This document shows, piece after piece, positions 12,000 through 26,590 of a stretch of DNA of 64,000 nucleotides. A program made the position numbers and the translations under genes. The first letter of the stretch is position 1; the number at the start of each line of letters is the position of its first letter. Origin of the DNA: Litoreibacter meonggei (GTDB taxonomy: Bacteria > Pseudomonadota > Alphaproteobacteria > Rhodobacterales > Rhodobacteraceae); contig NZ_RCCE01000003.1 of NCBI RefSeq assembly GCF_003663885.1, positions 62,001 to 126,000 on the forward strand, in the 5' to 3' direction. The notes under the pieces were generated by a model. That model was not told where the DNA came from, did no database searches, and saw only the letters and a list, made by a program, of their open reading frames with translations.

Positions 12000-14264
12000 A
12001 TGACAGATCAAACTGCAAATCAGGAGGATATCGTCCTAGCCGAGGGCGTGGATGAAGAACCGGTTGAGCGGAACAGACGACTTTTTTCAGGTAATAATCT
12101 GATCGTCTTCGCATCGCTGGCAACCTTATATGCCGCTTTTCACATGCTTGCACTAAACGGTGTCTCGATCAGCGCATGGACAGGCATTGAACTGCCGTTC
12201 TTGCCGCAGTTTCCGGTAGAGACCTGGAGTTTCCGCATCGTGCACATCGCAGGTGCTCTGGCACTTGGTTTTCTATTGTTCAATGCAAGGCTCTTCTCTG
12301 ATGAAGACGTCTCTGCAACACCACTTCTTTCGAAAGCAGGCTATCTGCTCTTCATTCCTGCGGCGATCTCCCTCTATACCGTTTTTGGCTTCATGCAGCT
12401 GGTGAATTCCGGCACGCTGCCGGTAATGGGCGGGTTGACCTCTTGGGCCGCTTTCCCAGGGACCGAGATCTACCAGACTGAGATTGCCTGGTTTGGCGTA
12501 CCGCTTCTGATCGCCGCACTTGGGGCCATCGCTCTGGGATGGTTTGAAAAGGCACCGCGTGACAGGTTTGCCACCGCGGACCTAGTCATGGCGCTTTGCA
12601 GTCTGATCGTCGCATTCTACCTCATCACGGTTTATTCGACGGCCGCGCGTAATTCGGTGGGCACGCCTTTTGTTCCTGTCGGAGTGGCTTTCGCGGCGAC
12701 GGCAGGGGCTGGATTAATCCTGGAATTGACCCGCCGCGTCGCAGGCTTGGCGCTTGTGATCATTGCCGGAGTCTTTTTGGTCTACACATTCACGGCCCAT
12801 CTGATGCCCGGCATATTGGCGGTATCGAACGCCTACACCTGGCAGCGTTTCTTTGGCCACGTATATTCCGACGCAGGTATCATTGGGCCAACCACGGCCG
12901 TGTCATCTACCTACATCATCCTCTTCATTATTTTCGCGGCGTTTTTGCAGGCCTCGAAAGTGGGCGACTACTTCGTGAACTTTGCCTTCGCTGCTGCCGG
13001 TCGTGCACGCGGCGGCCCGGCAAAGGTGGCAATCTTTGCCTCGGGCCTTATGGGGATGATCAATGGCACCTCGGCGGGCAATGTTGTGGCCACAGGGTCG
13101 CTAACAATCCCTCTAATGAAGAAAGTGGGCTATAAAGGTCGCACAGCAGGCGCAATTGAGGCCGCCGCCTCGACGGGTGGCCAAATCATGCCGCCCATCA
13201 TGGGGGCCGGCGCATTCATCATGGCCGAAATCACCGGCATTCCCTATCAGGAAATTGCGATTGCCGCGATCATTCCAGCGATCCTCTACTTCGCGTCGAT
13301 CTATTTCATGGTGGACCTTGAGGCCGCCAAACTGGGCATGACCGGAATGAACGAGGACGAGATTCCGAAGTTCAAGAAACTCGTGCGCCAGGTCTATTTG
13401 TTCATCCCGATCCTGATCCTGATATTCGCGCTTTTCTTGGGGTACTCGGTTATTCGCGCAGGCACATTGGCGACAGTTTCGGCTGCAATGGTATCCTGGC
13501 TAACGCCCCATAGAATGGGTGTCCGATCGATCCTGAAAGCCTTTGAACTGGCCGGGGTCATGTCGGTTCAGATCATCACGGTCTGCGCTTGTGCAGGCAT
13601 CATCGTGGGCGTGATCAGTTTGACTGGCGTCGGCGCCCGTTTCTCGTCAATGCTGCTCGGTATTGCGGACGCAAGCCAACTGCTCGCACTCATCTTTGCA
13701 ATGTGCATTGCGATCCTGTTGGGCATGGGTATGCCGACAACTGCAGCTTACGCTGTGGCGGCATCGGTGGTCGCACCAGGCCTTGTTAATCTCGGTATCC
13801 CAATGCTGACGGCCCATTTCTTCGTCTTCTACTTCGCGGTTGTCTCAGCGATCACACCACCCGTAGCTTTGGCGAGTTACGCTGCGGCGGGCATTTCAGG
13901 ATCTAACCCGATGGCCACTTCGGTCACGTCATTCAAGATCGGCATCTCCGCCTTCGTCGTGCCGTTTATGTTCTTCTACAATTCCGCCATTCTGATGGAC
14001 GGAACTTGGCTTGAGATCATGCAGGCAAGCGGCACCGCCCTTGTTGGAGTGTTTTTGTTGTCTTCGGGCATCCAAGGCTGGTTTGTAGGCGGGCGCATTG
14101 CGTGGTTCCTACGGGTGGGCCTTGTCGTCGCCGCACTGTTTTTGATCGAAGGCGGTTTCATCACCGACCTCATCGGTCTGGGGGGCACGGCCCTGGTCGT
14201 CTTTGTCCAGAAAATCATCAGACCATCGCCAAATCTACAATTTGAGGTCCGCGGTTCCGATTAG
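12000..14264 (+). CDS. TRAP transporter fused 4TM/12TM permease
   Basis: This 754-aa polytopic membrane protein fuses the small DctQ-like and large DctM-like TRAP subunits, as usual for TAXI systems. The N-terminal 50 residues are acidic and cytoplasmic. Hydrophobic helices then run to the C-terminus, with the DctM signatures GGPAKVAIFASGLMGMINGTS, EAAASTGGQIMPPIMGAGAF and GMGMPTTAAYAVAA. It uses an ion gradient, typically sodium, to import the ligand delivered by the receptor. ATG 12000 lies 3 nt after GGAGGG; a TTG at 11979 is an alternative. The pair probably forms one transcript. Confidence 0.92.
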   Translation: MTDQTANQEDIVLAEGVDEEPVERNRRLFSGNNLIVFASLATLYAAFHMLALNGVSISAWTGIELPFLPQFPVETWSFRIVHIAGALALGFLLFNARLFSDEDVSATPLLSKAGYLLFIPAAISLYTVFGFMQLVNSGTLPVMGGLTSWAAFPGTEIYQTEIAWFGVPLLIAALGAIALGWFEKAPRDRFATADLVMALCSLIVAFYLITVYSTAARNSVGTPFVPVGVAFAATAGAGLILELTRRVAGLALVIIAGVFLVYTFTAHLMPGILAVSNAYTWQRFFGHVYSDAGIIGPTTAVSSTYIILFIIFAAFLQASKVGDYFVNFAFAAAGRARGGPAKVAIFASGLMGMINGTSAGNVVATGSLTIPLMKKVGYKGRTAGAIEAAASTGGQIMPPIMGAGAFIMAEITGIPYQEIAIAAIIPAILYFASIYFMVDLEAAKLGMTGMNEDEIPKFKKLVRQVYLFIPILILIFALFLGYSVIRAGTLATVSAAMVSWLTPHRMGVRSILKAFELAGVMSVQIITVCACAGIIVGVISLTGVGARFSSMLLGIADASQLLALIFAMCIAILLGMGMPTTAAYAVAASVVAPGLVNLGIPMLTAHFFVFYFAVVSAITPPVALASYAAAGISGSNPMATSVTSFKIGISAFVVPFMFFYNSAILMDGTWLEIMQASGTALVGVFLLSSGIQGWFVGGRIAWFLRVGLVVAALFLIEGGFITDLIGLGGTALVVFVQKIIRPSPNLQFEVRGSD

Positions 14265-19578: not shown

Positions 19579-20514
19579 TTAGACCGCGTCATACACCAAG
19601 CGAAAACCCGTATGTGATGTTGAGGTGTCCTGTGAGCCGCTGTTTCGGGCCGCGATGCGGTATCGGTAGCAATAGCTGCGATGGCACAGGAACGATCCTC
19701 CTTTGCTAAGTTTGAACCCTTTTTTCCCAGCATGGGCTGCGATCACGTCTTTCTTGAGGGACCGGACTTTGAACAATTCGGACGTAAGTTCCCAGACATT
19801 ACCAACCATATTGTAAAGACCGTAGGCATTGGGCGCGAAGCTGCGGGCGGGTGCGGTTCCGGTGTATCCATCAAACGCCAGATCTTGATGCGGAAACCGG
19901 CCTTGCCAGATGTTGCAGGGTTGGAAGTCTGTGTCGTCAGGCTCTTGATCGCCCCATGGGAACGGAACATCGCCCAAGCCACCGCGCGCCGCGTGCTCCC
20001 ATTCGGCTTCGGTGGGCAAGCGACCACCGGCCCACCCCGCGAAGGCCACCGCATCGTTCCACGAGACGTGGACCACTGGGTGATCGTCCATCAGGTGATC
20101 TGCGGTGTCTGGTCCAAATAAATCACGCCAATTGGCGCCCTGGATCATCCGCCACCAAGGCGCATCTGCGACGGCGTGACTGGGGGGTGTTCCTTTTGGC
20201 AAAAGGCCCTGAAACACCAAGGAGTCGCCAAAACGCTCGGCATCCGTGACGTACCCCGTGTCGGCCACAAAATCGCGGAACTGTGCGTTGGTGACAGTGG
20301 TCGCGTCCATGCGAAACGCGGGCATTTTCTTTTTGCGCAATGGCCCTTCGCCATCGACGGGAAAGAACGGGTGATCTGTACCTAGCAACGCGCGCCCACT
20401 TGGAATTTTTACCACCTCAGCATGGTCACGCACAACATGCTGCCCAAGAGGCAATGCCTCGCGCTCGGGCGTCGTTCCAGCCGTTTCTCGGCTTGGAGTG
20501 CAGCAGGGTTTCAT
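19579..20514 (-). CDS. Formylglycine-generating enzyme (sulfatase-activating)
   Basis: FGE oxidises the active-site Cys of type I sulfatases to formylglycine. The 311-aa protein has the whole FGE-sulfatase domain, and crucially the copper-binding cysteine pair Cys277 and Cys282 in GGSFLCHRSYCYRYR. This matches true FGEs (Cys336/Cys341 in the human enzyme) rather than the many FGE-like proteins without it. Other landmarks are PVVHVSWNDAVAFAGWAGGRLPTEAEWEHAARGG and GNVWELTS. It is last in the operon, 69 nt downstream of the sulfatase it should activate. The ribosome site at 20514 is weak. Confidence 0.93.
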   Translation of the reverse strand: MKPCCTPSRETAGTTPEREALPLGQHVVRDHAEVVKIPSGRALLGTDHPFFPVDGEGPLRKKKMPAFRMDATTVTNAQFRDFVADTGYVTDAERFGDSLVFQGLLPKGTPPSHAVADAPWWRMIQGANWRDLFGPDTADHLMDDHPVVHVSWNDAVAFAGWAGGRLPTEAEWEHAARGGLGDVPFPWGDQEPDDTDFQPCNIWQGRFPHQDLAFDGYTGTAPARSFAPNAYGLYNMVGNVWELTSELFKVRSLKKDVIAAHAGKKGFKLSKGGSFLCHRSYCYRYRIAARNSGSQDTSTSHTGFRLVYDAV

Positions 20515-20583
20515 CGCGCCAACAGGGTCCGTTTCATGGATATACTGCGCGCATTAAACATCTCAAGCCCCCAGCAATCCAGC

Positions 20584-22146
20584 CTACTTCTTGCTTTGCC
20601 TTGGATGCTGCGGAGGCGTGACAGGCACATACGGATAGCGCCCACGCTGTTTGGTGGCGGTGGTGCTGGGATCGTTGCCGCCCCGCACATAGACCTTGGA
20701 CGGATCGTATCTAGGCCCGAAATCCCATGACGGGAAGCGCCCGTGCTTCATTGCGTCGTGAACAAACAGGCGTTTGCGCTGTGACGCGCGGATACGCTGG
20801 TCCAGATCGTCCTCGTCCCAACGCTGCTGCATTTCGGCAAACATCGCGTTCAGGTCGTCGCGGTAAGTGGGATCATCTGCCAAATTGGTCAGCTCAAGGG
20901 GGTCAGCCGCAAGATCAAAGAGCATTTTCGGATCAGTGCGGCTGTGAACCAGTTTCAGGTTGCCCTTGATCATGATCATCGCAGGCGCATATAGCCCTTC
21001 GCCGTTGAACTCGATGAAAACCTTATCCTCTGCGCTGCCCCGCGCGGGCAGATCGAGCAAGCTGCGACCGTCATAGGGCGCTGCATAGCTGTCAAACGTG
21101 CCGTCACTGGCGATGTCGGTGAAGGTCGGCAACAAGTCCACGAGCGAGGCCAAGGCGTCTTCGCGGTGGCCTGCTTTCAACTTTGGACCCTGCGCAATAA
21201 GCGGCACGCGCACCGAGGCTTCAAAGGGGTTGAACTTGAACCACATGCCGCGCTCGCCCAGCATTTCGCCGTGGTCGGACGTGATGAAGATGTAGGTGTT
21301 GTCCAACTCGCCGATGCTTTTAAGCGTCTCAACCAGACCGCCGATCATCTCGTCAAAATGCGTGCACATGGCGAAATAGCCGCGCCGCGCGTTGTACAAT
21401 TGCTCTGGCGTAATATCGAATTCGTCCTGACGGATGGTCAGGTAATAGCGTTGCGCCCACGGGTCGCGATCCTCGTAGGGGATGTGGGCGACTTCCGGCT
21501 CCGGGATGTCGACGCCCTCATACATGTCCCAGTATTTCTTGCCCGCAACGAACGGATTGTGCGGCTGGGTGAAGGACACATGCAGCATGAAGGGCTGGTC
21601 ATCGGTGGAGCGCGCGTGGTTGTACATTTCTTGTTTTGCGGCGGCGAAGACCTCCTCGTCGTAGTCTATCTGGAGGTTCCGTTCGCAATGCCCTGCCTCA
21701 ACCACACTGAGAAGGCTCATCACCGAAGGGGCATAAGGCTCGTCGGTCTGGTCCCAGTCGGCGGTCCACGCGAAATCGGACGGGTAAATGTCTGTTGTCA
21801 CGCGCTCCTCGAAGCCGTGAAGCTGGTCTGGGCCGACGAAGTGCATCTTGCCGGACAAAGTTGTTTTGTAGCCTAACGTGCGCAGGTAATGCGCGAAGGT
21901 CGGCTCGGATGGCAAAAACTCGGCGCCATTGTCAAAGACGCCCACATCAGATGGCAACCGCCCCGTCATCATCGAGGCCCGCGACGGGCCGCAGACCGGA
22001 TTGTTGCAATAGCTGTTGGTAAATGTCGTGCCATTTTGCGCAATCTTGTCGATGTTTGGCGTGATCGCATAAGGCTTGCCGTAGGCGGACAGGCAAAGGG
22101 CGGTCATTTGGTCGGCTTGGATGACAAGAATATTCGGGCGGGACAT
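20584..22146 (-). CDS. betC: Choline-sulfatase-type type I sulfatase
   Basis: This 520-aa cytoplasmic sulfatase probably releases sulfate from choline-O-sulfate. The maturation motif is CGPSR with Cys52 (C-x-P-S-R), the site of formylglycine formation. BetC-like stretches include YCNNPVCGPSRASMMTGRLPS, LSGKMHFVGPDQLHGFEER, FITSDHGEMLGERGMW and a C-terminal choline-sulfatase extension. ATG 22146 (MSRPNILVIQ) is chosen because homology starts there and AAGGA precedes it by 8 nt. The neighbouring FGE, TAXI-TRAP system and ROK regulator suggest a dedicated sulfate-ester uptake and hydrolysis unit. A sulfated sugar or other ester remains possible because no betA, betB or betI is present. Confidence 0.88.
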   Translation of the reverse strand: MSRPNILVIQADQMTALCLSAYGKPYAITPNIDKIAQNGTTFTNSYCNNPVCGPSRASMMTGRLPSDVGVFDNGAEFLPSEPTFAHYLRTLGYKTTLSGKMHFVGPDQLHGFEERVTTDIYPSDFAWTADWDQTDEPYAPSVMSLLSVVEAGHCERNLQIDYDEEVFAAAKQEMYNHARSTDDQPFMLHVSFTQPHNPFVAGKKYWDMYEGVDIPEPEVAHIPYEDRDPWAQRYYLTIRQDEFDITPEQLYNARRGYFAMCTHFDEMIGGLVETLKSIGELDNTYIFITSDHGEMLGERGMWFKFNPFEASVRVPLIAQGPKLKAGHREDALASLVDLLPTFTDIASDGTFDSYAAPYDGRSLLDLPARGSAEDKVFIEFNGEGLYAPAMIMIKGNLKLVHSRTDPKMLFDLAADPLELTNLADDPTYRDDLNAMFAEMQQRWDEDDLDQRIRASQRKRLFVHDAMKHGRFPSWDFGPRYDPSKVYVRGGNDPSTTATKQRGRYPYVPVTPPQHPRQSKK

Positions 22147-22170
22147 GGCAGGATCCTTGATGTGGAAAGT

Positions 22171-22205
22171 CCCACCCAAGCCGCCAACGTGACGGCCCGG
22201 GTGGG
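22171..22205 (-). repeat. Hairpin between TAXI receptor and sulfatase genes
   Basis: CCCACCC (22171-22177) and GGGTGGG (22199-22205) pair over 7 bp, with an inner GCCG/CGGC stem. There is no U-run. It may protect the receptor mRNA and set a higher receptor level than the downstream enzymes, a common arrangement in transporter operons. Confidence 0.4.
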
Positions 22206-22219
22206 CGGGAGAGACGGTT

Positions 22220-23194
22220 TTATCCGCCTGTTCTTGCAACGAATTCCTCAATGCCGGGCACATTGATTTCGCGGTAGTAGCGCAGCGCGCCTGGGTGCAA
22301 TGGCGAGCCAAAGCCGTTCAGGATCGTGTCAGCCGACATTTTGCCAAATGCGGGGTGAACACCAGCAAGGGCTTCGAGATTTTCAAAGACGGCTTTGGTC
22401 ATCTGGTAGACGCGCTCTTCTGGCACATCGGCGGAAATCACCAAGCCATTCGCCAAGCCGAAGGTGGGCGTGTCAGCGGTGACATCCTCGTAAGTGCCGC
22501 CGGGGATGGACAAGCGGAAATACGGTGGGTAGTCGGCGCGCAGCGCGTCAAAGAAGTCGTCTTCGACGGGGATCAGTTTCAGATCACGTTGCGCGTTCAG
22601 CTTGATCACTGGGGCCAGCGGGAAGGACCCATTCCAAAGTGCCGCGTCGATATTGCCATCGCTCAGCATGTCGACCATGTCGCCAAGGCGCACGCGGAAC
22701 GGCTCGAAATCCTCGCCTGCGATTTTGGCCATCAACACGTTTGCGTCCAACATCGACACGCCACCGGGCTGGCCCATGCCGACGCGCTTGCCTTTCAGAT
22801 CAGCAACCGAATTCACCGGCCCGCCTTCAAGCGCGATAATGTGCATCGCAACCGGTGCGATGGACATCCAAGCCATGATCTTGCCCGGCTCGGTGCCCTC
22901 ATAATTTCCGGTGCCAGCCCATGCCTCGTAGGCCGACAGCGAGGTCGCCATGGAGGCTTCCAACTCGCCGCCCTGCATCAAGGCAATATTGGCGACGTAG
23001 CCTTTGGTTTCTTCCGCCGTGGCTTGTACGCCTTCGACGTTCTTGTTGATCACGTCCGCGATGCCAGCCGACCATGTGTAGGCCGTGCATGTGACTGGAC
23101 AGGAGCCGATTGACAGGAAGTCAGCGGCTTGGGTCAGGGTTGGTGTTGCAAGCGTCGCCATCGCGAACATTGCGGTCTTAAAGTCGAGTTTCAT
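22220..23194 (-). CDS. TRAP transporter solute receptor, TAXI family
   Basis: This 324-aa exported receptor has a signal peptide (residues about 1-23, ending TLTQAAD). The TAXI fold follows, with motifs FLSIGSCPVTCTAYTWSAGIADVIN, LKGKRVGMGQPGGVSMLDA and DAALWNGSFPL. The SCPVTC cysteine pair in the first ligand loop is unusual compared with the more common GTGGTYYP-type loop. ATG 23194 is supported by GGGAGA 8 nt upstream and by the signal peptide. It lies 11 nt after the fused permease and upstream of the sulfatase, so its ligand is plausibly the sulfated substrate. Confidence 0.88.
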   Translation of the reverse strand: MKLDFKTAMFAMATLATPTLTQAADFLSIGSCPVTCTAYTWSAGIADVINKNVEGVQATAEETKGYVANIALMQGGELEASMATSLSAYEAWAGTGNYEGTEPGKIMAWMSIAPVAMHIIALEGGPVNSVADLKGKRVGMGQPGGVSMLDANVLMAKIAGEDFEPFRVRLGDMVDMLSDGNIDAALWNGSFPLAPVIKLNAQRDLKLIPVEDDFFDALRADYPPYFRLSIPGGTYEDVTADTPTFGLANGLVISADVPEERVYQMTKAVFENLEALAGVHPAFGKMSADTILNGFGSPLHPGALRYYREINVPGIEEFVARTGG

Positions 23195-23205
23195 TGGTCG
23201 TCTCC

Positions 23206-25140
23206 CTATTGTGTTTGGTCCGGCGGGTTTTGCCCCGCCACGTTTTCTGGTTCTGCTGATTGAGAGGCGCGGCGTGTCGTCCAAACGACGAGTCCCGCGA
23301 GTATGGCAAAGGCGGCAAGGTCGACGCGCCAATCGGAGTTCATGAACAAGATCGCAGTTGCCGCGAAAAGCAGCCGCTCGATGACGTTCAGTCGTCCGGT
23401 GAAGTGGCCGAGCATTGCGGCACTCGCGCAAATGCCACCGACGATGGCCGTCACAAACGACATGCCCATCTGCACCCATGTCACGTCGATCCCTAAGATT
23501 GCTGGGTCGTAGACAAAGAAATACGGCACTGCGAACGCCGCCATACCGAACTGGCAGGCCAGCACCGCGATCTTAAGCGGATTGCCGTTCGCGATGGACG
23601 CAGCGGCGTAGGCAGCAAGTGCAACGGGCGGCGTGATGGAGGACAGCATCGCTGAATACAGCACGAACAGGTGCGCGGCCAACAGGCTGACCCCAAGGTT
23701 CACCAAAGCCGGTGCCACCAATGTCGCCACCAAGATGTAGGCCGCAGCCGTCGGCAAACCCATGCCAAGGATCAGGCAGGTCAGCATGGTCAAAACCAGC
23801 GCCAATGGCAGCGAGCCGCCAGACAGTGCCACAACAAGCGTCGAGAACTTCAACCCGATCCCCGTCAGCGTGATGATCCCAATGATCACCCCCGCAGCGG
23901 CGCAGGCCAAAGCTACCGGAATGACTGCGTTTGCGGCAGCGACACAGGTGTCTACGATACGGCGTGGTGTCAGGGCCGTGGACTTATTGAGGTAGCTGAC
24001 CAAGGACGACGCCACGATGGCCCAGAAGGACGACAGCATGATGGAATAGCCGTTGAGTAGCATGCTGACAAACACGGGCAGCGGGATCAGCAGATACGAA
24101 TTCCGCAGGATCAAGCCCCAGTCCGTCACCGAGTCCGCGTCGCGCAGGATTGGGATTTTCCGCTTGGCGGCCTCGAAATGGACCATCGCCAACAGCACGG
24201 CATAGAAGATCACCGCAGGCAGGAATGCGGCCTTGGCAATGGTGAGGTAGGAGGTCTCTGTGAACTCCGCCATGATAAACGCCGCGGCCCCCATGACAGG
24301 TGGCATCAGCTGCCCGCCGGTCGAGGCGACAGCCTCAATCGCGCCCGCCGCTTCCTTGCGGTAGCCGCTTTTGCGCATCAGCGGGATCGAAATCGGGCCC
24401 GTTGTAAGCACATTGGCCACCGCCGTCCCCGAGATCATTCCCATCAAGCTGGACCCGACCACCGCCGCCTTCGCTGGCCCGCCGCGCATCCGTCCTGTCA
24501 GGGCCGTCGCGAAATCCATCAACACCTGTCCCGCTCCGGTTTTCTCAAGCAAGGCACCCAGAACCACCACACCCGTCACGAAAGTCGCACTGACCCCCAG
24601 CGGCGTGCCAAATATCCCGCCGCCCCCAAGATAAACCTGCGACGCGACGCGTTTGAGCGAATAGCCCCGATGGGCCAGCGGATCAGGCAAGTAAGCGCCA
24701 AAAAGTCCGTAGAGGATGAACAGGCTCGCCAGCAGCACAATCGGCAACCCAATCGTGCGGCGGCACGCATCAAAAAGCGCAATAACGAGCATCGTGCCAA
24801 AAACAATCTCGTATTGGGTGATCGCCCCGTAACGGTTGTTTATGGCCTCAAAGTTGAAAAACTGATGGCCAGTCGCGATCAAGGCGCCGATCAGGGCAAT
24901 GACAATCCACCCTCGCCGCAGCCAAATACCAGCCCCTGTCGCAGCGTCGTCTTCAGCATCCAATGTCGCCCGAAAAGCCGTCGCAAACACAAGGATCATC
25001 ACAAGCAAAAGATGCGCGCTGCGCTGAATGCCGTCGGGAAAGACACCGAAATAAGCCGTGTGTAGCGTCAGACCAACCAAAAGAACCGCAGCGCCTGCAA
25101 TGACGCCAGATAACAGCTTGAATGGCATCGGCTTACCCAT
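23206..25140 (-). CDS. TRAP transporter fused permease (TAXI-associated)
   Basis: This 644-aa polytopic membrane protein fuses the DctQ-like and DctM-like parts. Signatures include GGPAKAAVVGSSLMGMISGTAVANV, EAVASTGGQLMPPVMGAAAF and LGMGLPTAAAYI, typical of TAXI permeases. The last 25 residues are hydrophilic. ATG 25140 overlaps the 3' end of the ROK regulator by 8 nt, with GGAG close upstream. With the receptor it forms a complete secondary transporter, second in the ROK-permease-receptor-sulfatase-FGE operon. Confidence 0.92.
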   Translation of the reverse strand: MGKPMPFKLLSGVIAGAAVLLVGLTLHTAYFGVFPDGIQRSAHLLLVMILVFATAFRATLDAEDDAATGAGIWLRRGWIVIALIGALIATGHQFFNFEAINNRYGAITQYEIVFGTMLVIALFDACRRTIGLPIVLLASLFILYGLFGAYLPDPLAHRGYSLKRVASQVYLGGGGIFGTPLGVSATFVTGVVVLGALLEKTGAGQVLMDFATALTGRMRGGPAKAAVVGSSLMGMISGTAVANVLTTGPISIPLMRKSGYRKEAAGAIEAVASTGGQLMPPVMGAAAFIMAEFTETSYLTIAKAAFLPAVIFYAVLLAMVHFEAAKRKIPILRDADSVTDWGLILRNSYLLIPLPVFVSMLLNGYSIMLSSFWAIVASSLVSYLNKSTALTPRRIVDTCVAAANAVIPVALACAAAGVIIGIITLTGIGLKFSTLVVALSGGSLPLALVLTMLTCLILGMGLPTAAAYILVATLVAPALVNLGVSLLAAHLFVLYSAMLSSITPPVALAAYAAASIANGNPLKIAVLACQFGMAAFAVPYFFVYDPAILGIDVTWVQMGMSFVTAIVGGICASAAMLGHFTGRLNVIERLLFAATAILFMNSDWRVDLAAFAILAGLVVWTTRRASQSAEPENVAGQNPPDQTQ

Positions 25141-26392
25141 GGGTTACTCCATGCGCCTGCTCCGGGGCATCTGCGAAGCGGTCATAATCCAGCCGGTCCG
25201 AGTAGCAAAACGCGTGCAACGCCAGCAATGCGGCGGCATCCACCGAGGAAATGGTGCCCTTCACCAATTGGAACGAGCCCTGAGGGTCATAGTCAAAATG
25301 GCGCTCAAGCGTGCCCTTAACGGACGCAAAGTAAGTCTCGTTCGTGCCAAGGTAACCACTCAGGATAATCATTTTCGGCCCAAGCAGCTTGGCAGTGCTG
25401 TCCAGCGCAGGCGCAAGTTTCTCACCTGCCTCTGCAACAAATTCAGCCGCGTCCGGATCATCCAACGCATCAAGCAGCGAGGCCGCGTAAAACGACAGCT
25501 TCGAGGTGTCAAAAGCGCGGTGCTCCAGCTTGCCCAACTGCGACAACAGCCCAAAGCCCGTTGCGGACAGGTTCAGGCAATCATGCCGCCCACACACACA
25601 GGTCAGTGGCCGTTCTTCCGCGCGAAAATGGCCCAAGAGGCCAGAGATACCGGAATCGCCACGCACCAAACGGTTGTCGGACACCACGCCTGCGCCAACA
25701 AACGTCGCAGCGTGAATGAGTGTAAAATCCGCCACATCACGCGCGCCGCCGAACCGCATCTCTGCAATGGCCAGCGCATTCGAGATGTTCTCGATCTCGA
25801 TTGGCAAATCAATGATCTTCTGGATTTCACGGCAGAACTGGCCACCATCATTGGCCCAGCCGAAATAGTCAGATGTCACGATTTCGGCACGGTCCGGCAG
25901 CGTCCTGCCAGACAGCGCCACCCCGATCCCCACAATCCGGTTAACATCAATCTCAGATACTTCTATCAAGTCACGCAACGCCTCGGCATAGACCCGAGCG
26001 GCGTCAACGACATCACCAAGTGGAACATTCTCGGGGCGGCTGCTTGCGCACAGCTTCCCGTCCGCGTCGCAAATCGACACTTCCGAGTGATAAGCAGAAA
26101 CGGTGATGCCAACGGCAAACAGGCCGTCTTTCACAATGTGAAGGCCTGTTTTAGGGCGACCGACGTGCTTCTTCTTTTCTTTGGCTTTGTCGGTTGCACT
26201 CGACTCTTGAATGATCCCAGCGGCCAGCAATTCCCTAACGATACGGGTTGCGGCCATTTCCGAGAACCCACACATCCGAGCAAGTTCCGCCCGCGAGATG
26301 CCCGGCTCTGCCTGAACCCGCGATAGGATCATACCGCGATGCGTCTTCCGTAAACTTGCAGGCGTAGCGCTTGAGCGTAACTTAATAACCAT
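25133..26392 (-). CDS. ROK-family transcriptional regulator
   Basis: This 419-aa protein has an N-terminal winged helix (about residues 10-70; SRAELARMCGFSEMAATRIVRELLAAG) and a ROK sugar-kinase-like domain with the zinc motif C-x-C-G-x-x-x-C (CVCGRHDC) and the GHFRAEE His region. This is the NagC/XylR regulator design, which usually senses sugars or phosphosugars. It is first in the operon and overlaps the permease gene, so it probably controls its own unit. A sugar-sensing family here is a hint that the transported compound could be a sulfated sugar rather than choline sulfate. Confidence 0.88.
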   Translation of the reverse strand: MVIKLRSSATPASLRKTHRGMILSRVQAEPGISRAELARMCGFSEMAATRIVRELLAAGIIQESSATDKAKEKKKHVGRPKTGLHIVKDGLFAVGITVSAYHSEVSICDADGKLCASSRPENVPLGDVVDAARVYAEALRDLIEVSEIDVNRIVGIGVALSGRTLPDRAEIVTSDYFGWANDGGQFCREIQKIIDLPIEIENISNALAIAEMRFGGARDVADFTLIHAATFVGAGVVSDNRLVRGDSGISGLLGHFRAEERPLTCVCGRHDCLNLSATGFGLLSQLGKLEHRAFDTSKLSFYAASLLDALDDPDAAEFVAEAGEKLAPALDSTAKLLGPKMIILSGYLGTNETYFASVKGTLERHFDYDPQGSFQLVKGTISSVDAAALLALHAFCYSDRLDYDRFADAPEQAHGVTHG

Positions 26393-26590
26393 CTGTTAGT
26401 TAATAATAGGGCTCACATGATTCGATCAAGACTTTCCTGTCTGAAGCCGTCCCGACTATCTCTTCAATGTAAGAGGCTGCGCCGAGTATCGAGGTATCCG
26501 ATTTCACAATAGAGGACATTCGACACTCCGCAGCACTCATGCGGTTTGGGCTCAAAGCCGCCATTCGCAGCATGCAGGTAAAGGTCGTAC
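26393..26590. other. Spacer upstream of the ROK operon
   Basis: 198 bp without a gene. It should carry the promoter of the ROK-TRAP-sulfatase operon (minus strand) and holds a dispersed-repeat copy. No clear terminator is seen for phoH transcripts entering from 26591. Confidence 0.45.
26547..26569 (+). repeat. Dispersed repeat copy, right of island 2
   Basis: Contains GGGCTCAAAGCCGCCATTCG, differing in only two positions from the core of the copy at 19458-19480 and in the same orientation. Confidence 0.65.

What the first reader, a model, noticed from the sequence alone, without database searches (positions are those of the whole stretch)
19579..26392. Self-contained sulfate-ester uptake and hydrolysis operon
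In order ROK regulator, TRAP permease, TAXI receptor, type I sulfatase (choline-sulfatase-like, CGPSR) and a true FGE with its Cys pair: transport, cleavage, enzyme activation and control in one overlapping unit. Characterised choline sulfate systems use other transporters and lie with bet genes. A TAXI-TRAP system for a sulfate ester under a sugar-sensing type regulator appears undescribed.
Basis: partly seen in the sequence, partly recalled or inferred. Interest (0 to 1): 0.75.

Follow-up and report, generated by a model that had tools for sequence, protein, structure and literature searches.

The report
TAXI-TRAP import cassette with sulfatase
Five adjacent genes in a marine bacterium look like a kit for importing a small sulfated molecule and cutting off its sulfate; the cutting enzyme would be labelled a choline sulfatase but lacks most of the residues that grip choline, so the real target is probably some other compound.

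Summary
The five genes are there, in the stated order and strand, with intact active-site motifs. The cassette is conserved: TRAP, TAXI and sulfatase stand together in 22 of 22 relatives at 79% identity or more (in L079 the TAXI has an in-frame stop), while 0 of 31 loci of other choline-sulfatase-like genes hold such a TAXI. The sulfatase passes NCBI's choline-sulfatase cut-off, but the choline clamp WWYHN reads PSVMS in all 22 and the window, with catalytic residues, Trp129 and Glu386 kept. The same genome has a separate betI-betC-betB-betA set. The receptor has lost the glutamate contacts of VcGluP. I therefore hold choline-O-sulfate to be an unlikely substrate. Larger versions carry two to five sulfatases, often with GMC dehydrogenase, aldehyde dehydrogenase and an acid-sugar-dehydratase-like enzyme, which points, weakly, to a sulfated sugar, polyol or sugar acid; 7 of 8 genomes without the type-B set lack a close GMC. 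Two single-contig relatives carry these Cys-type sulfatases but no Cys-pair FGE and no anSME was found. No substrate is shown. New variant of a known kind.

The parts
25133..26392 (-). ROK-family transcriptional regulator, 419 aa
   Evidence: sugar-site Asp and Glu replaced in the window and 19 of 19 readable relatives
23206..25140 (-). fused TRAP permease, 644 aa; overlaps ROK by 8 nt
   Evidence: TIGR02123 610 bits, Pfam DctM 285 bits
22220..23194 (-). TAXI-type substrate receptor, 324 aa; glutamate contacts of VcGluP replaced
   Evidence: TIGR02122 245 bits; contact residues
20584..22146 (-). type I (formylglycine) sulfatase of the choline-sulfatase family, 520 aa
   Evidence: TIGR03417 589 bits; nearest solved structures are S. 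meliloti choline sulfatase, 42% identity, TM 0.86 for the model
21979..21993 (-). CGPSR formylglycine motif, sulfatase residues 52-56
   Evidence: coordinates by arithmetic from the start codon
21715..21729 (-). PSVMS, sulfatase residues 140-144, in place of the choline clamp WWYHN
   Evidence: coordinates by arithmetic
19579..20514 (-). formylglycine-generating enzyme, 311 aa; only Cys-pair FGE found in the genome
   Evidence: Pfam PF03781 246 bits
19669..19686 (-). FGE active-site cysteine pair (C277, C282)
   Evidence: coordinates by arithmetic
26382..26406 (-). imperfect inverted repeat TTATTAAC-N9-GTTATTAA over the ROK start codon, candidate operator
   Evidence: one match, 0 expected in shuffles; conserved block
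26400..26429 (-). candidate promoter TTGATC-N18-TATTAA; no Shine-Dalgarno-like run before ATG by eye, possibly leaderless
   Evidence: same hexamer places in type A and type B relatives; positions by hand count; not returned by the consensus scan

Best explanation
The five genes form a catabolic cassette that seems to pass between genomes. The TAXI receptor binds a small organosulfate other than choline-O-sulfate in the periplasm; the fused TRAP permease imports it intact; the FGE turns Cys52 of the sulfatase into formylglycine; the cytosolic sulfatase releases sulfate and an alcohol; the ROK protein controls the cassette from a promoter/operator over its own start codon. The window version is one form of a larger system that, elsewhere, carries further sulfatases and a GMC dehydrogenase / aldehyde dehydrogenase / enolase-superfamily module. 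Shown by sequence: gene content, order, conservation, motifs, loss of the choline clamp, loss of the glutamate contacts. Inferred: transport of a sulfate ester, cytosolic hydrolysis, non-choline substrate, regulation, transfer.
For: Families and order. TRAP+TAXI+SULF in 22 of 22 loci at 79% or more, in records named as Rhodobacterales genera, Ahrensia, Pelagibius and Granulosicoccus; TAXI in 0 of 31 other choline-sulfatase-like loci. In another alphaproteobacterial order TAXI relatives occur in 11 of 136 genomes; in all 11 stretches TAXI stands by TRAP and/or sulfatase genes: SULF seen in 9, SULF2 type in 9, SULF3 type in 10; two are short contigs (L179, L184). Clamp WWYHN is PSVMS in 22 of 22 plus the window and PSRMS in the 9 of 9 SULF genes of the other order. 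Catalytic residues kept in 22 of 22. Thirteen TAXI pocket letters are the same in the window and the 4 relatives at 64-68%. The genome's own bet set can handle choline-O-sulfate. Tree with pocket columns left out: PSVMS on one side of a branch (SH-aLRT 95), WYHN likewise (97). AlphaFold model nearest to S. meliloti choline sulfatase.
Against: No substrate, transcript or growth data. Trp129 and Glu386 are kept: Trp129 is one half of the choline clamp (PMC9063841) and residue 386 matters for choline-O-sulfate by mutation (PMC5870055; PMC9063841 disputes direct binding), so a cationic substrate is not excluded. The clamp loop is modelled with low confidence (residues 136-142). No Cys-pair FGE follows SULF in 15 of 22 loci; ROK is absent in L071 and L077 and partial in L063 and L070; TAXI in L079 has an in-frame stop. 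The tree tool warned that the long PSVMS branch meets the outgroup. At 49-54% identity the TAXI pocket differs at four to six of thirteen sites in the 5 relatives read.
Confidence: 0.7

Rival explanations
1. It is a second choline-O-sulfate system: the sulfatase cleaves choline-O-sulfate and the TAXI-TRAP imports it.
For: TIGR03417 equivalog cut-off passed (589 vs 433) and Choline_sulf_C domain present; Trp129, Tyr123 and Glu386 kept; fold nearest to S. meliloti choline sulfatase.
Against: W142-W143-Y144-H145-N146 replaced in the window and 22 of 22; tail residue D500 also differs there, in a poorly aligned part. His145 and Trp129 clamp choline in crystal structures (PMC9063841, abstract and passages). 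The genome already has BetC with WWYHN beside BetA, BetB and BetI.
Confidence: 0.1
2. A specific form of the best explanation, not exclusive of it: the substrate is a small sulfated sugar, polyol or sugar acid, sometimes with several sulfates, removed by SULF, SULF2 and SULF3; the desulfated product is oxidised by the GMC and aldehyde dehydrogenases and dehydrated by the MR/MLE enzyme.
For: 12 of 22 loci carry SULF2 and GMC. The MR/MLE protein of L071 shows KLK, the acidic ligand positions and an Asp and His as in mandelate-racemase-type enzymes (alignment; residue roles recalled); those of L063 and L071 score best with talarate/galactarate dehydratase, below cut-off. The ALDH of L063 scores best with ketoglutaric semialdehyde dehydrogenase, below cut-off. 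L063 and Granulosicoccus G198 add a DctP-type TRAP to the module; DctP receptors mostly take organic acids (PMC11574862, passages). Related islands occur in another order.
Against: Of 8 genomes without the type-B set beside the cassette, a close GMC (70%) was found in 1 and an MR/MLE at 53-54% in 3, one of them the window's own beside a different transporter. No NCBIfam cut-off is passed among the rows shown for GMC, ALDH or MR/MLE. The ALDH is a remnant in the two loci I read (L072, L080). The ROK sugar-site acids are lost.
Confidence: 0.35
3. A sulfur-scavenging system: the substrate is an aryl or alkyl sulfate and the cell wants only the sulfate.
For: The window cassette has no catabolic enzymes; S. 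meliloti choline sulfatase also cleaves an aryl sulfate (PMC5870055, abstract and passages); a SulP-like gene, named by eye, lies next to G125's FGE (L040; same record as L067).
Against: Marine bacteria are not usually sulfate-limited (recalled); catabolic genes linked in type B and the other order.
Confidence: 0.2
4. The transporter and the sulfatase are unrelated neighbours.
For: Gaps of 73 and 69 nt; no transcript data.
Against: Linkage kept in 22 of 22 close loci with varied flanks and in the other order with changed gene order.
Confidence: 0.05

Closest known systems
Choline sulfatase BetC, SulfAtlas S1_12 (S. meliloti, EC 3.1.6.6; PMC5066984, PMC5870055, PMC9063841, passages)
   Same: Fold, formylglycine motif, catalytic residues, Choline_sulf_C domain
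   Different: Choline clamp WWYHN is PSVMS, not with bet genes, not beside BetI
TAXI-TRAP transporters (VcGluP for glutamate; orthophthalate system of Azoarcus; PMC11574862, passages)
   Same: TAXI receptor family with a TRAP permease
   Different: Glutamate contacts replaced; linked to sulfatases
bet operon of Roseobacters (PMC4744692, PMC10132767, passages)
   Same: Sulfatase; in type B also a GMC and an aldehyde dehydrogenase, as betA and betB
   Different: Different transporter, regulator and pocket; GMC and ALDH of L063 miss the betA and BADH cut-offs
NagC/Mlc-type ROK regulators
   Same: Winged HTH plus ROK domain, zinc-type Cys motif
   Different: Sugar-site Asp and Glu replaced (roles recalled)
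Formylglycine-generating enzyme (SUMF1)
   Same: Full domain and Cys pair
   Different: N-terminal CCxP motif, not examined further

Membership tests
Choline sulfatase (BetC, S1_12) | Score over TIGR03417 cut-off | tested here: met
   589 vs 433
Choline sulfatase (BetC, S1_12) | Catalytic set D14 C54 N75 K102 H104 H201 D296 H297 K309 | tested here: met
Choline sulfatase (BetC, S1_12) | Choline clamp W129 plus WYHN (H145, N146) | tested here: not met
   W129 kept; WWYHN is PSVMS in the window and 22 of 22
Choline sulfatase (BetC, S1_12) | Hydrolysis of choline-O-sulfate | not testable with these tools
   needs an enzyme assay
Choline sulfatase (BetC, S1_12) | Linkage to bet genes (usual, not strictly defining) | tested here: not met
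   the bet set is at G000:C2
TAXI-TRAP transporter | TAXI receptor and fused permease adjacent, both over cut-off | tested here: met
Glutamate TAXI (VcGluP type) | Y45, S75, Q93 and further contacts | tested here: not met
   A, Y, T in the window and 22 of 22
Formylglycine-generating enzyme | FGE domain and active-site Cys pair | tested here: met
Sugar-responsive ROK regulator | Sugar-site Asp and the Glu of ExGH (recalled) | tested here: not met
   replaced in the window and 19 of 19 readable relatives
Sugar-responsive ROK regulator | Zinc-type CxC-x4-C motif (recalled) | tested here: met
Sugar-responsive ROK regulator | Effector is a sugar | not testable with these tools
   needs binding assays

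The most novel reading that the evidence does not exclude
A TAXI-TRAP-fed pathway for multiply sulfated small sugars or sugar acids, with SULF, SULF2 and SULF3 each removing a different sulfate in the cytosol, spread by transfer through marine Alphaproteobacteria and Granulosicoccus; and, in one order, sulfatases of this island are matured by an unknown third formylglycine system.
Probability: 0.25. Interest if true: 0.8.

Novelty: new variant of a known kind. Interest (0 to 1): 0.58.

Why it matters
It gives the TAXI-TRAP family, of which few members have a known ligand (PMC11574862, passages), a candidate ligand class: small organosulfates. It shows that NCBI's choline-sulfatase model passes proteins with other pocket types, so annotation-based counts of choline-O-sulfate use in the sea may be too high. 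It offers a compact testable system for turnover of an unidentified marine sulfate ester. Relatives with Cys-type sulfatases but no recognised maturase make the question of a third formylglycine-forming system directly testable.

Tried and rejected
Choline-O-sulfate as substrate: held unlikely on the pocket. Glutamate as TAXI ligand: rejected on contacts. Sugar sensing by ROK in the classic site: made unlikely. Promoter-like and terminator-like consensus hits did not exceed shuffles (3 against 2.9; 10 against 8.0), so I rely on comparison. The TAXI structure model was poor (pLDDT 52) and not used. The sulfatase model only confirmed the fold. Searching 8 genomes without the type-B set for the GMC and MR/MLE genes gave mostly misses (L073 was not held and not searched). 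The N75/K102 differences in SULF3 were not interpreted, since that alignment is distant. The tetronate genes near L060's cassette were not taken as part, since the window has other neighbours. Limits of the counts: the genome scan used two peptide patterns only, so relatives without them, such as the PSRMS sulfatases of the other order, were missed, and 22 is a lower bound. Loci L095-L102 (24-31% identical) were not used in any count or control. Rows dropped: L011 and L013 from the tree (L011 repeats L067; L013 is a fragment); L060, L062, L080, L086 as near-duplicates in the promoter count, where L070 had no usable anchor. The rows were lined up on the string ATGGTTA, so those seven bases are conserved by construction; one search gives 0.93 for the eight bases before it. 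L086 was in the list by mistake and is left out of the count of 31. The output was cut; one search repeats that check for the same loci, for the listed queries only.
Full report
WHAT IS THERE. The minus strand of window 19579-26392 holds ROK (25133-26392), fused TRAP permease (23206-25140), TAXI receptor (22220-23194), sulfatase (20584-22146) and FGE (19579-20514). ROK and TRAP overlap by 8 nt; the other gaps are 11, 73 and 69 nt. The FGE is the only Cys-pair FGE found in the genome: the second PF03781 protein lacks the pair and no anSME was found. The genome's other matches to the choline-sulfatase model are a canonical BetC at C2 (889 bits) and a more distant sulfatase at C4, returned in two pieces. 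BetC lies with BetB, BetA and BetI, each over an NCBIfam cut-off.

CONSERVATION. A scan of the genome collection with an alignment of four orthologs, by two peptide patterns, returned 43 loci; 22 (L060-L080, L086) are at 79% identity or more, the next at 62% over part and below. TRAP, TAXI and SULF stand together in that order in 22 of 22; in L079 the TAXI has an in-frame stop at codon 35. ROK is full in 18, partial in L063 and L070, absent in L071 and L077. An FGE match follows SULF in 8; 7 have the Cys pair (L060, L063, L064, L065, L067, L068, L069) and in L073's 43% homolog the motif was not found. Eleven loci (L070-L072, L074-L080, L086) are what I call type B, with GMC, ALDH or an ALDH remnant, and SULF2 upstream; L063 has FGE and these genes downstream; L061, L062, L066 and L073 have neither a Cys-pair FGE nor SULF2 in the DNA held. 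Two further genomes, G055 and G184, are type B. A sample of 394 genomes of the family gave 7 with a TAXI at E 1e-80 or better, the window's own included; 385 of the class gave 3, the window's own and G055 included. Records named Granulosicoccus (Gammaproteobacteria), Pelagibius (Rhodospirillales) and Ahrensia (Hyphomicrobiales) are among the 22. The 92% sulfatase identity of Granulosicoccus suggests transfer, but these are records of uncultured isolates or MAGs in part, so misassigned contigs are not excluded. As a control, in 31 loci of other choline-sulfatase-like genes no such TAXI and no such FGE was found; some of these stretches are short (5.8 to 21.5 kb).

THE POCKET. S. meliloti choline sulfatase holds choline between Trp129 and His145, in a GW-X13-WYHN hairpin, with Asn146-Asp500 as a gate (PMC9063841, abstract and passages). 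Glu386 matters for choline-O-sulfate and not for the aryl sulfate (PMC5870055, abstract and passages); PMC9063841 disputes that it binds the quaternary group. In the window and 22 of 22 relatives the catalytic set, Trp129, Tyr123 and Glu386 are kept, but W142-N146 read PSVMS. SULF2 reads PS[AGV]T[GA] with Ile at 386 in 12 of 12. Other members of the family read KWYHN, PTNLT, PSGYN, EGATD, TDAGG and more. With the pocket columns left out, the WYHN, PSVMS and SULF2 groups each form one side of a branch (SH-aLRT 97, 95, 99), with a long-branch warning for PSVMS. So the NCBI equivalog model passes proteins that lack the clamp: the window's (589 bits), L063 SULF2 (529), and two of G790 (605 and 566).

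THE RECEPTOR AND THE REGULATOR. VcGluP binds glutamate chiefly through Y45 and Q93, with S75 next (PMC11574862, passages). The window TAXI has A, T and Y there; H123, E125, D157, Y200 and M201 are also replaced, in the window and 22 of 22. The 4 relatives at 64-68% have the same thirteen pocket letters; 5 relatives at 49-54% differ at four to six. The ROK protein has lost the sugar-site Asp and the Glu of ExGH in the window and 19 of 19 relatives that could be read there, 18 full-length and L063's partial copy; L070's was too short (site roles recalled, aligned letters of other ROK proteins, where two Listeria ROK regulators also lack the Asp). Before the ROK start, the stretch about 50 to 98 bases upstream is unconserved (mean commonest-base fraction 0.39-0.46), while the eight bases before the start reach 0.93 in 16 de-duplicated loci (rows were lined up on ATGGTTA, so those bases are conserved by construction). 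The conserved block fits a TTGATC (window) or TTGACA (type B) hexamer and a TATTAA or TACAAA hexamer at the same places, with no Shine-Dalgarno-like run by eye, so a leaderless transcript is possible. The inverted repeat TTATTAAC-N9-GTTATTAA over the start codon occurs once in the window (0 expected with up to 3 mismatches); in the loci its exact form was found in 6 others. Part of this conservation lies in codons 1-4 and may be due to the protein.

THE LARGER ISLAND. L063 carries, near the cassette, a PhyH-like oxygenase, a DctP-type TRAP, a PanB-like protein, SULF3, MR/MLE, GMC, SULF2 and ALDH. In Granulosicoccus G198 a GMC (70%), ALDH, GntR, MR/MLE, DctP and PhyH set lies apart from the cassette. 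In another order of the class, G790 (one contig) has ALDH, GMC, GntR, MR/MLE, SULF2, SULF3, TAXI (65%), TRAP, ROK, SULF4, SULF (65%, pocket PSRMS), TauD and a further sulfatase at the edge of the stretch. Of 136 genomes of that order 11 have a TAXI at E 1e-60 or better. In the 11 stretches SULF is seen in 9, SULF2 in 9, SULF3 in 10 and ROK in 9; L179 and L184 are short contigs and SULF2 was not seen in L185. Two loci of the window's family pair a further sulfatase (pocket PTNLT) with TctC/TctA-like genes, named by eye, and one of them also with GMC and ROK. The recurring pattern is an uptake system plus one or more choline-sulfatase-family enzymes.

MECHANISM. Most likely the receptor catches a small organosulfate, the permease imports it, the FGE matures the sulfatase, and the sulfatase releases sulfate in the cytosol. 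Only the parts and their conservation are shown. The nature of the alcohol is open. Type B and the other order point to a sugar, polyol or sugar acid through GMC, ALDH and MR/MLE, but no NCBIfam cut-off is passed among the rows shown, and of 8 genomes without the type-B set beside the cassette a close GMC was found in 1 and an MR/MLE at 53-54% in 3. So this remains a lead at about one in three.

AN UNEXPECTED POINT. G790 and G914, each one contig rated 100% complete, have these Cys-type sulfatases, but their only PF03781 protein lacks the Cys pair, and no anSME was found in any of the 10 genomes searched, the window's own included (the control search rang in 12 of 14 known genomes, over the cut-off in 2). 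Of 9 TAXI-bearing genomes of that order searched for FGE, 7 lack a strong match and 2 have one of 240 bits or more, which serves as positive control; 5 of the 7 are incomplete. By contrast, of 24 genomes of the close group searched, 23 have a PF03781 match of 200 bits or more and one (L075's) has 132 at best. I recall that E. coli also makes formylglycine without either known enzyme; this was not looked up.

LITERATURE. Searches (2 of 2 papers listed; 15 of 32; 3 of 3; 10 of 269; 12 of 13; 7 of 7) listed no paper that, by title and start of abstract, describes a TAXI-TRAP with a sulfatase; passages of PMC9038784, PMC10132767 and PMC4744692 were read. The library holds open-licence papers only and most of the larger lists were not seen, so the absence is not proof.

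Noticed in passing
L186 (G790), L187 (G914): Single-contig genomes with several Cys-type sulfatases but no Cys-pair FGE and no anSME found: possible unknown formylglycine maturation.
   Followed up: partly
L007:6992-12288: Canonical betI-betC-betB-betA set in the same genome as the window, BetC with WWYHN.
   Followed up: yes
L014-L018, L020-L022, L024, L026, L027, L029, L030, L032, L034, L035, L039: A sister clade of choline-sulfatase-like enzymes with KWYHN (AWYHN in L024) pockets; at L049 (same gene as L021) it lies by a Rieske oxygenase (GbcA-like) and an L-carnitine-dehydrogenase-like gene, both below cut-off: perhaps another quaternary-ammonium sulfate.
   Followed up: no
L053:7571-15120 and L058:5559-11430: Further sulfatases of the family (pocket PTNLT) beside tripartite tricarboxylate (TctC/TctA-like, by eye) transporters; in L053 also GMC and ROK.
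   Followed up: no
L072:3600-4060, L080:3600-4060: The ALDH next to GMC/SULF2 is an in-frame remnant with a large internal deletion; short ALDH matches also in L076, L078, L079, L086.
   Followed up: partly
L079:8964-9935: The TAXI gene of this MAG has an in-frame stop at codon 35: broken gene or assembly error.
   Followed up: no
L042:7879-11069: In G184 the sulfatase is split by a transposase-like ORF (named by eye).
   Followed up: no
L060:341-3071: A 3-oxo-tetronate kinase gene (over cut-off) with aldolase-like and isomerase-like neighbours (by eye) near the Litoreibacter copy of the cassette.
   Followed up: no
19579-20514 (FGE N terminus): The window FGE and the 7 Cys-pair FGEs next to SULF share an N-terminal CCxP motif; role unknown.
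   Followed up: no
L061:398-1902, L062:13878-17574: Both Granulosicoccus copies lie near xanthine-dehydrogenase-like genes (by eye), on different sides, and L062 has a transposase-like ORF at 12730: possible mobility.
   Followed up: no
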